From contig BRYA01001534.1 in NCBI GenBank assembly GCA_030267965.1, positions 1 to 64,000 of the forward strand: a stretch of 64,000 bases of DNA, in the 5' to 3' direction. Origin of the DNA: Triparma columacea. Lineage: Eukaryota > Sar > Bolidophyceae > Parmales > Triparmaceae. This document shows positions 24,311 through 58,205 of the stretch, one piece after another; position 1 is the stretch's first letter; every line of letters starts with the position of its first letter. The translations under genes were made by a program, and so were the position numbers. The notes beneath the pieces are model-generated. The model saw only the letters and a list, made by a program, of their open reading frames with translations. It was not told where the DNA came from and ran no database searches.

Positions 24311-26699
24311 TCAATCCACCTTGATGCTTGCAAAGATGGTCTGGGTGAACCAGGAGCAACTGAGGAAACCAATGGTACCACAGACGATAAATATCGCAAG
24401 GGAAATGAGGAAGTTGTACCCAAAGTAAAGGAGGTACGTGATCGCCAGGTTTGAGGGCTCGAGCAGGTTGAACCACATGACGGAGTAGGCGAAGACGTAG
24501 AACGCCGTGGATCCGCACGTGAAGAATGAGCGCCAGTGCCACCGGTGGTCCTCGGCGCAGAGCTGGAAGTAGCAGAAGAGGATGGACAGCTCTCCGCAAG
24601 TCACGGCCAGGATGATGCAGACGAGGAAAGCGATCCCGAAGACGTAGTAGAACTGCTCCATCCAGATAGAGGAGAGGATGAAGAAGAGCTCGACATAGGC
24701 GGCTCCGAATGGCAAAACTCCTGAGCGGGGAGGAGAGTGGAGAGGAGCGAAGCGAAGACGGAAGAGTTGCGTTAGTACTCAGAATTTGCGTATTTCCCTC
24801 TTCTTGTCCATTCTCTCACCTCCCATCAAGACAACGGAATGGGTCTGGAGGTACCAAGGGAGAGGGCGGACCTCCCTAGGAATACTGCTCGTCACGCAAG
24901 GGTACTCCCAAACCGGTTTCTTGTATCCAAAGAAGGCCCCGAAGAACACGAGGGGGATTGAGACACAGCACCAGAGAGCCATGACGGAGAGGATCTGGAG
25001 GAAAGGGGTCGCGGCCGCAGAATGGTAGATGGACAGGACAATGTTGGTGAGGACAAAGAAGGCGAAGATGGATCCGGGGAACGCGACGGCGGTGAGGATG
25101 GTGCAGCGCTACACGGGAGGGGTGGGGGGGGGGGCAAGTGTGGCGAGCCGCAAAGAGGATTATGTTAGTGAATAGTTGAGGTGGTTCCGACGCCACTGTT
25201 TTTATTTTCGCCATTTCTCACCTGCCACTCACGCCCGCGGAAGCTCTTGTACAAGCGGGAGGAGACGTNNNNNNNNNNNNNNGGGGGGGGCTGCGTTGGT
25301 GGACAAGATGCGGCACTCTTCTCCCCTCCTCCATTTTCTCACCTCCTCAGCCTTCTCCTCGTCGGTTAGAACACTATTGTACTGGGAGATGTCGCGCTTG
25401 AGGTTCTTGATGAGGATCATTCCTACGAGTGCGGACAAGAAGAAGATAATCAGAAGCGAGTTGATGATAGAGAACCAGTGGATGCGGGCGGGGACGCGGT
25501 TGTCCATGGAAAGGTAAATGTCCCATCGGGAGGCCCACTTGGTTTCCGACTCGGTCCAGATGACGTCGTAGGTGTAAAGGATGGACTGCGGAGGATTAAG
25601 TTAGTGTTTAGAATTGTTATACTTTGCTATTGTCAATTCTCACCTCGTTCTCGGCCACAACCTGCAACTCTGAGACCTGATCGGTAGATAGCCAGTTGCT
25701 GTTGGAGCATGTCTGCAGAGGACGCGAACGTCCCTCCACACTAATTCCGTCCCATTCCCAGCCATCGACGTAGCGGTGCTTTACAGAGATGGGCTCCACA
25801 TAGAAGCCAACGATACGGTATCCCTGCTCTCCGGGGATCGACTCGACCTGGTGGTGCTCAATAATCAGCTTGACGTGGTTGAAAACGTAGTGCTTCTTGT
25901 CGACGCCCGTGAAACCGATAGGCCACCCCCCGGCAAACTCAGTGTACATCAAATTCTCGTTGTTGACCACCATGGCACTGGGCAGGTTGTCAATGATCCA
26001 GTGGTTATGATACTCGTGCTCAATGGCTGCGGTGGCGACGAGCGGCGGAAAAAAAGATTTGCAGAGGGCCAAGAGAGGAAAAGTAAGATTAGTGGCACGA
26101 GAAGCAAAAATATATAGCATCCCCCTAATGCAGAGCTAACCTGACCGCCCCACTCAACACAATCCACCTCACCTTTCTTGAGGGTCTTCGCCTGCGCCGC
26201 AGTCAACGTCTTCTGGCAAAGTACCGAACAGAAGTTCTCCAACAACATGTACAAATGGTAGGGGGAGCTCTGAATCTTGTTGCCCGTGATAAACTCGCCA
26301 AGGTTCTCGCTGGCTTTCTTAGGCCCTCCGTCGGGCTCGCAGAATGGCATTGAATAGTAATCTAGCGGCAATTGTGTGTGCATGGAAGTAATGGTGTTGA
26401 CCTTCATTTCAACCGGGGCATTTTCTGCAAAAGTCTTCGGATCGACGCCAGGCTGTTTACGGGGAGGTTAGTAATGTGTGACTTTCCGATACAAGCATTA
26501 CGCAACGGAGTTTAAAACGGAGTTAGGGGAACAAAAAGGCAAGCCCGGGCCAACGAACTTTGGAGCCCGTGGTTGAATTGAGAGTCATTGGGGATAATTA
26601 GCCGCATTTCTGTCGTTTCCATACATATCAACGATTACTCACTAGATAGAAGGCATCCCCTAGTGCCAAAATACAAGAAAGGGCGCCCAAAATTCTCAT
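24311..26699 (-). CDS. Transmembrane 9 superfamily (TM9SF/EMP70 nonaspanin), interrupted by an assembly gap
   Basis: Exons are 26699-26643, 26452-26173, 26026-25644, 25585-25343, an exon from about 25290 through the gap to 25223, then 25108-24820 and 24720-24311. Exon 1 codes a signal peptide (MRILGALSCILALGDAFYL). The luminal domain shows DYYSMPFCEPDGG and EYHNHWIIDNLPSA. The first transmembrane helix is SIINSLLIIFFLSALVGMIL. The multi-span region includes CAEDHRWHWRSF and the family-typical end FASIKVD. TM9SF proteins sit in Golgi and endosome membranes and sort membrane proteins with glycine-rich helices. About 569 residues are visible against roughly 590-660 in the family. The segment after EEKAEE (normally GWKLVHGDVFR and the next two helices) is missing at the N-run, so it is lost in the assembly rather than in the gene. 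Confidence 0.92.
25269..25282. other. Assembly gap (14 N) inside a TM9SF exon
   Basis: The N-run is flanked by an eight-base G homopolymer on the right. Family comparison shows that roughly 90-100 codons of the TM9SF protein are absent here, so the true gap should be a few hundred bases, not 14. Confidence 0.9.
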
Positions 26700-56481: not shown

Positions 56482-58205
56482 TTAATCCTCCTGCTGCTCC
56501 TCCTCTTGTTCTTCCTCCTGCGCCTCCCCCAAGGCTCCCCCCTCCTTCTCCATCTCATCTATTTCCATCTCCACCCCTTCAACCCCTTCCCCTTCTTCCC
56601 TTCCCCCCTCATCATCGGGATCGTCGGGATCGTCAATATCCCCTTCCTCATCGGCACATATTTTGACATTGTCGTCATCGTCCTTGTCCTCATCCTCATC
56701 CTCATCCTCATCCTCATCCTTGTCCTCATCCTCATCCTTGTGCTTGCGTAGCGGATTTCGATCGATCAACTGGATCTCAACCTTCGCATCGTCTGCCTCT
56801 CCTTCGCCTCCCTCTCTGACCAACCCTTCTCTCTCTCTCCACAACCTCCCCAGGAGCTCCAGGCAACGTTTCAACCCGTAATCCCGCTCAAGCCAAAAGT
56901 ATGAAAGGAAGGAGACAACTTTCAAAGCCGTAGTAGCTACGGTAGATGTGGGAAAAAGGGTTACACACAACACTATAACCCCTCCGACTAAGAAACCGAA
57001 GATAATTAGTTTGGCGCTGTAGCCAATTGCCTCCAATACAGTCGACCTCGTTTCGATTTCATGTATAAGCCATCTTCTCTTCTCCTCTTCGTCTGACGAG
57101 GCTTCATAAATGTCTGAGGCTTCCTTGCGCAAGCTAATCATCTTCACGATGTTGTCCTCGCGACAGATTTCATCGAAGATTCTGTCCGGGCTGCTTTCAT
57201 TCGTGGAACCGAAGGAATGGTTCAAATTTGGCTCTTTCAGAAAGGTAATGCTTCCTTTGAACGGGCTCAGGTAAATACCACTTAAGTGTGAATACCACTT
57301 CTGATTTCAAAACCTTCTTAAACCTTCTTAACGCCACATTACGACGTTATTACTAAGGGGAGAGCGAAGCTTGTTTGTCTGATCGACGTTCGTGAGTTCC
57401 CAGGATCGCACGTCCGCGAACTGAAAGTCCCCACCAGAGCATTCCCCGAGGGAGAAGGGAACAAGGGGATGAAAAGCCCCCATAATCCCCCTGCCCCCAA
57501 TCCCGCCCCCAATCCCGCCCCCAATCCCGCCCCCAACCCCGCCCCCAACCCCGCCCCCAGGCCCAAACCCCCCTCTCCCGTGAGTTACGCTCCCCTCTCC
57601 CGTGAGGTACGCTCCCCGCCCGAGGTGAGAAGGGAACAAGGGGATGAAAAGCGGACATTTCGATCTTTAAACGTTCTTGTCTCTCTTCCTAATTGTCCCG
57701 CTCCTCGTTGCTCACTCACCCCCCCCCCTTCCCCCATAATCCCCCTGCCTTACTCAATCTTCCTTGGTCAGGCTCATGGTGTGATTTCCTGACAATTTTA
57801 GGGTGAGCAAAACGGTTCGTAAGTAGAATTCTTGCGTACATCAGTCCTATGAACAACATTGCAATGGTAGGGAGCGTAAAAATCGCCGTAAAAACAGCCG
57901 TTTTGGTGACAAATCAAATTATTGAGATCAGGTTTTATATGAAGGTGTACGTAATTTTATATATTTTTTCGATAATTCCGTATCATACGTATAATAATAC
58001 CGCTGCGCGAAATTTAACCTGAAACACAATCTATCTCATCTGGACCAAATCATAAGTGGTATTCACACTTAAGTGGTATTTACCTTAGCCCTCCTTTGAA
58101 CAATTTAACTATTGTTGAGAACATAAAGACAAACCACAGGGCACAGAAGGCACTTACGAGTACCTCGTGCTTCTCCTCAGCGTCCCAACTTTCAATTGAG
58201 AGCAT
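56482..58205 (-). CDS. Small membrane protein with acidic tail, 301 aa, gene interrupted by a transposon-like intron
   Basis: Exons are 58205-58084 and 57265-56482, joined at phase 2 by removing the 818-nt intron 57266-58083. The protein starts MLSIESWDAEEKHEVLV. It has a membrane helix (AFCALWFVFMFSTIVKLF), a soluble loop, two further helices (LIIFGFLVGGVIVLCVTLF and ATTALKVVSFLSYFWL), and a highly acidic C-terminal tail. The tail has Asp-Glu repeats encoded by GAGGAT-type hexamers near 56680-56740. I do not recognise the family. Without the element the two flanks read straight on (VKLFKG then SITFLKEPN), which shows the insertion hit an existing coding exon. With splicing at the element's own sites the protein gains seven residues (GLSPFKG) and stays in frame. 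Confidence 0.72.
57253..57262. repeat. Target-site duplication, left copy
   Basis: TCCTTTGAAC, identical to 58092-58101, directly flanks the inverted-repeat element. Confidence 0.93.
57263..58091. mobile_element. 829-bp element with terminal inverted repeats acting as a probable introner
   Basis: The ends are inverted repeats: 57263-57307 and 58047-58091 match over 45 bp with two mismatches (GGGCTCAGGTAAATACC against GGGCTAAGGTAAATACC). They are bounded by a 10-bp duplication TCCTTTGAAC. Terminal GGG, long inverted repeats and a 10-bp duplication fit a non-autonomous Mutator-like (MULE) MITE. Each end contains AG|GTAAAT, a splice donor. Its complement on the other end gives CTGAG| or CTTAG|, an acceptor. 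On the host coding (minus) strand, splicing runs from CTAAG|GTAAAT to ACCTGAG|CCC. The inverted repeats contain a direct subrepeat ATACCACTT. The interior holds no transposase-like ORF. It has a C-rich 12-bp repeat and an AT-rich end near 57930-58020. Confidence 0.88.
57486..57560. repeat. 12-bp C-rich tandem repeat inside the element (possible G-quadruplex former)
   Basis: Copies of AATCCCGCCCCC and AACCCCGCCCCC lie in tandem. The complementary strand has closely spaced G-runs that could fold into a G-quadruplex. Confidence 0.85.
58092..58101. repeat. Target-site duplication, right copy
   Basis: TCCTTTGAAC, identical to 57253-57262. Confidence 0.93.

What the first reader, a model, noticed from the sequence alone, without database searches (positions are those of the whole stretch)
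57253..58101. A transposon-like introner: inverted-repeat element whose own termini supply splice sites and restore the reading frame
Seen: 45-bp terminal inverted repeats (two mismatches), a perfect 10-bp duplication TCCTTTGAAC on both sides, and an insertion in the middle of a coding exon. The uninterrupted host frame is VKLFKG-SITFLKEP. On the host strand the element begins GGGCTAAG|GTAAAT and ends ACCTGAG|CCC. Splicing there removes 818 nt and leaves 8 + 3 + 10 = 21 extra nt, exactly seven codons (GLSPFKG, of which FKG comes from the duplication). Because both inverted repeats carry AG|GTAAAT, the element could splice in either orientation. Known: introners with inverted repeats and target duplications are described in Micromonas and Aureococcus. 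Inference: this is an independent, Mutator-like introner family, and I know of no description with these ends.
Basis: partly seen in the sequence, partly recalled or inferred. Interest (0 to 1): 0.93.

Follow-up and report, generated by a model that had tools for sequence, protein, structure and literature searches.

The report
Transposon insertion resembling a ready-made intron
In a small marine alga, a short jumping-gene relic has landed in the middle of a protein-coding gene and carries, at its very ends, signals that could let the cell cut it out of the RNA; whether the cell does so is not shown, and the searches of this genome found no second copy.

Summary
An 829-bp element (57263-58091) has 45-nt inverted ends (43/45 matching) and a perfect 10-bp duplication (TCCTTTGAAC). 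It interrupts an exon of a minus-strand gene. Six of six relatives that span the site (two paralogues here, three environmental proteins, one from Triparma retinervis) run through it without a gap. The source is a Parmales-type alga.

The same genome holds a complete Mutator-like transposon and a deletion derivative, both with GGG-starting inverted ends and perfect 10-bp duplications. This supports a non-autonomous Mutator-like origin, though their end sequences are unrelated to this element's.

The edge donor AAG|GTAAAT is the best of 49 GT sites scored. About 0.08% of random termini match the joint pattern. The proposed acceptor, CCTGAG, is weak and is one of three that keep the frame with this donor. 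Unspliced, the protein stops after 41 residues.

The "introner family" claim fails its own test: no second copy was found in 37.85 Mb. Codon-adding introners carrying both splice sites are known in Aureococcus (PMC9860276). Splicing needs RNA data. Best reading: a single splice-ready Mutator-like insertion, about even odds of being spliced.

The parts
57263..58091 (-). Non-autonomous Mutator-like (MITE-like) element, 829 bp; no transposase seen in it
   Evidence: TIR plus TSD scan; sequence
57253..57262 (.). Target-site duplication copy 1, TCCTTTGAAC
58092..58101 (.). Target-site duplication copy 2, TCCTTTGAAC
57263..57307 (+). Left terminal inverted repeat, GGGCTCAGGTAAATACCAC..., holding the proposed 3' splice site for the host strand
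   Evidence: alignment of the arms
58047..58091 (-). Right terminal inverted repeat, GGGCTAAGGTAAATACCAC..., holding the 5' splice site for the host strand
   Evidence: alignment of the arms
58078..58086 (-). Predicted donor AAG|GTAAAT (intron starts at 58083), 8 of 9 matches to MAG|GTRAGT (consensus recalled)
   Evidence: best of 49 GT sites scored; splicing not shown
57266..57271 (-).
   Evidence: in frame; weak GAG acceptor; splicing not shown
57281..57286 (-). Alternative in-frame acceptor CTTAAG| (exon resumes at 57280); also a possible branch-point region for the edge acceptor
   Evidence: branch point is inference
57251..57258 (-). Alternative in-frame acceptor AAAGGAAG| just past the duplication (exon resumes at 57250); would add only GL
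57266..58083 (-).
   Evidence: inference
58102..58205 (-). Host coding sequence upstream of the insertion (ATG at 58205)
   Evidence: relatives align across the insertion
56482..57252 (-). Host coding sequence downstream of the insertion, open for 256 codons, then the stop
57750..58046 (+). 3'-end piece of a different dispersed repeat, with a roughly 30-nt internal deletion here, ending exactly at the inner edge of the right TIR

Best explanation
The element is a non-autonomous Mutator-like DNA transposon that inserted into a coding exon of a Parmales gene (a family with hydrophobic, probably membrane-spanning stretches) and duplicated 10 bp of target. Its terminal sequence GGGCTMAG|GTAAAT reads as a 5' splice site on one strand and, reversed, as ACCTKAG|CCC, a 3' splice site, so the ends can act as an intron boundary in either orientation. 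The spliceosome most likely removes it by the edge donor (intron from 58083) together with one of three in-frame acceptors (exon resuming at 57280, 57265 or 57250), leaving a slightly lengthened protein. Shown: TIR, duplication, insertion in a conserved coding exon, donor strength, frame arithmetic, and Mutator-like elements of the same build in this genome. Inferred: mobilisation by a Mutator-type transposase, recent insertion, and splicing. I put Mutator-like origin at about 0.85 and productive splicing with the edge donor at about 0.5.
For: TIR and perfect 10-bp TSD. Six of six relatives spanning the site are uninterrupted and gap-free there. A complete Mutator-like element at C62:89008-92834 has 52-nt TIRs starting GGG and a perfect 10-bp TSD; its transposase frame is 48% identical to a C676 fragment (query residues 15-130) that passes the Pfam MULE cut-off. 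A 748-bp derivative at C121:62692-63439 has a perfect 10-bp TSD. The edge donor scores 8/9, the best of 49 GT sites; donors that good occur in the first 20 nt of 0.9% of random termini, and the joint donor, acceptor and frame pattern in 0.08%. The C62 and C121 ends have no donor above 5/9 in their first 52 nt and no AG in their last 20 nt, so splice-ready ends are not a general trait of such elements here. Both halves of the host frame are intact, and unspliced RNA would stop after 41 aa. The photolyase gene in the same window has an intron with an AAG|GTAAGA donor and a TTAAG|CC acceptor, placed against a 95%-identical protein.
Against: No RNA evidence. The donor lacks the +5 G that both placed introns have. 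Those introns are 69 and 96 nt, against 818 here. The folded RNA pairs the donor and acceptor with each other in a 45-nt-arm hairpin, which may hide them. No second copy of the ends was found. A near-identical partial copy of the gene exists at C785 (67 of 69 residues in the compared stretch), so this copy could be dispensable. The other Mutator-like elements share only end style and duplication length, not end sequence, and represent one family. The 696-aa frame of C62 by itself scores below the Pfam MULE cut-off. The pattern was picked out after the fact from a large scan.
Confidence: 0.5

Rival explanations
1. An ordinary gene-breaking Mutator-like insertion. The splice-like letters at its ends are coincidence, the mRNA is not productively spliced, and the loss is tolerated because the gene is duplicated or dispensable, or because the insertion is very recent or polymorphic.
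For: Single copy of the ends; near-identical second gene copy at C785; weak GAG acceptor and competing frame-keeping pairs; occluding hairpin; the other Mutator-like elements here have no splice-site pair at their ends.
Against: Joint chance of the pattern about 8.5e-4 per random terminus, before allowing for after-the-fact selection; both host halves still open and in frame.
Confidence: 0.38
2. A true multi-copy introner family that is active in another Parmales species or strain and arrived here once, by horizontal transfer or as a last survivor.
For: Ends that fit the introner design seen in Aureococcus, with both splice sites carried and codons added (PMC9860276); no autonomous partner with these ends found in this assembly.
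Against: No relative of the ends found in the own genome or, as an exact 22-mer, in viral contigs; no other Parmales genome could be searched as DNA here.
Confidence: 0.1
3. Assembly chimera or collapsed paralogues producing a false insertion.
For: The C785 contig ends about 240 bp short of the duplication, at window 57013, after a stretch where the two gene copies are identical, so the assembler may have merged copies here.
Against: TIR, TSD and exact 10-bp symmetry are what transposition leaves, not what mis-assembly makes.
Confidence: 0.02

Closest known systems
Aureococcus introners that carry both splice sites (PMC9860276, Fig. 2F and 2G legend, read)
   Same: DNA-transposon-like insertion in an exon; both splice sites supplied by the element; retained element bases plus target duplication add whole codons (4 + 8 = 12 nt there, 11 + 10 = 21 nt here).
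   Different: There: a family of introners, an 8-bp duplication and an orthologue without the insertion. Here: one copy found, a 10-bp duplication, an 829-bp element and no expression data.
Mutator-like elements (MULEs), here the complete element at C62:89008-92834 and its derivative at C121
   Same: GGG...CCC termini, near-perfect TIRs of 45-52 nt, perfect 10-bp TSD.
   Different: End sequences unrelated; the C62 and C121 ends carry no donor/acceptor pair near the edge; no cognate transposase found for the window element.
Introner elements of Amoebophrya (PMC7789003, passages read)
   Same: Inverted repeats at intron ends, direct repeats at exon boundaries, predicted hairpin joining the ends.
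   Different: 8-20-nt inverted and 3-5-nt direct repeats, defined mainly among non-canonical introns, repeated in the genome.

Membership tests
Introner | Insertion creates the interruption inside a coding exon, with relatives lacking it | tested here: met
   six of six relatives spanning the site gap-free there
[quoted passage not shown]
   no second copy of the ends; the left half of the element matched nothing else, which skips simple repeats
Introner | Splice sites at or next to both element ends, frame kept | tested here: met
   sequence level only
Introner | Removed from mRNA by the spliceosome | not testable with these tools
   no transcript data for this strain
Mutator-like transposon (MULE) | Target duplication of 9-11 bp (length range recalled) | tested here: met
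   10 bp, perfect; the same length in the C62 and C121 elements
Mutator-like transposon (MULE) | Long terminal inverted repeats (recalled as typical) | tested here: met
   45 nt, 43/45
Mutator-like transposon (MULE) | MULE transposase, own or from a partner with the same ends | tested here: inconclusive
   MULE proteins are in the genome, but none was found with these ends; none seen inside the element

The most novel reading that the evidence does not exclude
A Mutator-type introner caught at its first copy: a non-autonomous Mutator-like element whose inverted ends encode donor and acceptor together (GGGCTMAG|GTAAAT), so that it can be spliced in either orientation, and whose 11 retained bases plus a 10-bp duplication add exactly seven codons. 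This would give a way to see an introner before it spreads.
Probability: 0.35. Interest if true: 0.65.

Novelty: new member of a known kind. Interest (0 to 1): 0.48.

Why it matters
Introners are a proposed main source of new introns, but they are usually recognised only after they have multiplied. A single splice-ready insertion in a conserved exon would show how a plain transposon becomes an intron, and whether splice competence comes before or after spread. It would add the Mutator-like type and the Parmales, the sister group of diatoms, to that picture. If it is not spliced, it is a useful caution against calling introners from splice-like letters alone.

Tried and rejected
A search for other copies by a 32-mer and two 19-mer terminal patterns with up to 3 mismatches, by the whole element and by the left 63 nt, found none above the reversed-pattern control where one was given. 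The seven CCGCTGATGTAAATACCAC hits belong to an unrelated repeat array, and the C105 and C186 hits look by eye like coding sequence of a gene family. A 22-mer of the ends gave no exact match in viral contigs. The same TIR/TSD scan over the loci held at that time (147,349 bases, many overlapping) found only this element; a looser scan of five further or larger stretches found the C62 element and nothing in the other four. So the C676-type MULE fragments gave no TIR/TSD pair. The host protein alone found no homologue at E 1e-3; only the three-sequence profile did. Two PDB searches with window pieces at 25620-26467 gave nothing. The first enumeration of splice pairs used a start codon two bases off, so its result is void; it was redone (one search replaced). 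My notebook checkpoint gives the ATG as 58207; the right value is 58205. The idea that the 57750-58046 repeat had interrupted a longer TIR was tested by aligning the continuation of the left arm with the reverse strand of 57501-57749: only 7-nt chance matches.

Full report
What is there. The window lies in contig C775 of a 37.85-Mb, 789-contig assembly. A photolyase gene in the window is 95% identical to an environmental protein and 71% to a Triparma retinervis protein, so the source is a Parmales-type alga; the species is not identified. The element is 829 bp (57263-58091) with 45-nt inverted ends at 43/45 and a perfect 10-bp duplication. A TIR-plus-TSD scan of the 64-kb window returned this element alone and nothing in three block-shuffled controls. 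The same scan of 147 kb of fetched, partly overlapping loci again returned only this element.

The host gene is real. On the minus strand it runs from an ATG at 58205 to a stop at 56482-56484; the empty-site protein has 294 aa. Alone it found no homologue. In its own genome it found two paralogues (C754, C282; 30-32% identity) and a near-identical partial copy at the end of contig C785 (67 of 69 residues). A profile of three sequences then found four proteins among 7,999 candidates: three environmental and one from T. retinervis. All six of these relatives run through the insertion point without a gap; the C785 partial copy does not reach the site. The element therefore sits inside a conserved coding exon, not in an older intron.

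What kind of element. No transposase was seen inside. The same genome has MULE-domain fragments over the Pfam cut-off at C676 and C707. It also has one complete element at C62:89008-92834: 3,827 bp, 52-nt TIRs at 98% starting GGG, a perfect 10-bp TSD and a 696-aa frame. That frame alone matches Pfam MULE only weakly (E 0.0072, below the cut-off). Its assignment rests on 48% identity over about 116 residues to the C676 fragment. A 748-bp derivative lies at C121:62692-63439 with its own perfect 10-bp TSD. The window element shares the GGG ends, long TIR and 10-bp duplication, but not the end sequence: only 5-nt chance matches. The reading 'Mutator-like' is therefore by anatomy, not by sequence.

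It appears alone. The 32-mer end with up to 3 mismatches matches only the two arms. The 19-mers give only chance-level extras (2 true plus 5 others, against 4 control hits; 2 true plus 11 others, against 12 control hits; seven of those 11 are one unrelated repeat). The left 63 nt match only the element's own two arms at E up to 10. Of the 38 matches, one is the element and two are its own arms. The other 35 fall in 57750-58051: nine are short pieces at 58015-58051, and 26 are pieces of a dispersed repeat whose common 3' end (CATCTGGnCC) stops exactly at the inner edge of the right arm. Long pieces reach 98% identity, so that repeat and this copy parted recently (inference). The search tools score only the best candidates and skip simple repeats, so absence is strong but not absolute.

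Splice signals. Among 49 GT sites from the ATG to near the element's end, the edge donor AAG|GTAAAT scores highest, 8 of 9. Sites that good occur about 0.4 per kb on each strand of the window, and fall in the first 20 nt of 0.9% of random termini. Requiring also an acceptor in the last 20 nt and a 10-bp duplication that keeps the frame leaves 0.08% (printed fraction 0.000845 of 200,000 draws). Six donor-acceptor pairs keep the downstream frame among 7 donors scoring at least 6 and 48 acceptors. Three use a 7/9 donor 66 nt upstream of the element and would delete part of the exon. Without splicing the protein ends after 41 residues. The ends of the C62 and C121 elements have no donor above 5/9 and no edge acceptor.

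Points against splicing. Two introns placed here by reading frames and relatives, in the photolyase gene (AAG|GTAAGA...TTAAG|CC, 69 nt) and in NOP56 (GAG|GTGAGA...CCCAG|AT, 96 nt), have +5 G donors and are about a tenth of the length. The arms fold into a hairpin that pairs donor with acceptor region, most pairs at probability above 0.85. This could hide the sites, or bring the ends together. The C785 copy offers redundancy. Its contig ends at window 57013, about 240 bp short of the duplication, so the assembly cannot tell whether that copy carries the element.

Compared with what is known. In the Gozashti 2022 paper (PMC9860276; outline and abstract, the Results section and the TSD/TIR methods read) introner families have 5 to more than 2,000 copies, 49 of 130 classifiable families show TSDs and 72 of 177 show TIRs. 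Aureococcus introners carry both splice sites and add 12 nt. A search of its main text for Triparma, Bolidophyceae, Parmales and Mutator found nothing; its supplements were not seen. Searches pairing introner, Mutator/MULE or transposon terms with splicing terms listed no Mutator-type introner by title or abstract start. The 2025 follow-up (PMC12130899), known here only from a reference list, is not held. It may well cover this type, so no claim of absence from print is made. Of PMC10328945, PMC12768974 and PMC7789003 only passages were seen.

Verdict. The element is best read as a single, probably recent, non-autonomous Mutator-like insertion with splice-ready ends in a conserved exon. Splicing is about an even bet and unshown. 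The claim of an introner family is not supported by this genome.

Noticed in passing
L037-L039, L044-L047 (contigs C6, C66, C133, C429, C485, C716): Arrays of roughly 300-bp units with a conserved core (GGCAGCC...TGGCG...CGCGTGTCTCCGAAATGCACG...GCATATCATA) and two short blocks that differ from unit to unit at fixed places, up to about 5 nt and about 9-20 nt; 28 distinct units extracted from six of the seven loci. Rfam gave only matches far below gathering scores in the two of these loci that were searched.
   Followed up: partly
L048:2008-5834 (C62:89008-92834): Complete Mutator-like element with 52-nt TIRs, a perfect 10-bp duplication and a 696-aa open frame, plus a 748-bp deletion derivative at C121:62692-63439.
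   Followed up: yes
window 57750-58046 and loci L002-L008: A dispersed repeat, 26 other matching pieces, some 5'-truncated, with a common 3' end CATCTGGnCC; kind not determined.
   Followed up: partly
L050 (C785:10001-12162): Near-identical 3' part of the host gene, ending at the contig end; no long match to the window beyond the gene's 3' end.
   Followed up: partly
L020, L021, L028, L031, L033, L049: Second MULE-like fragment family, pieces 83-98% alike at DNA level, scattered and partly at contig ends or beside gaps.
   Followed up: partly
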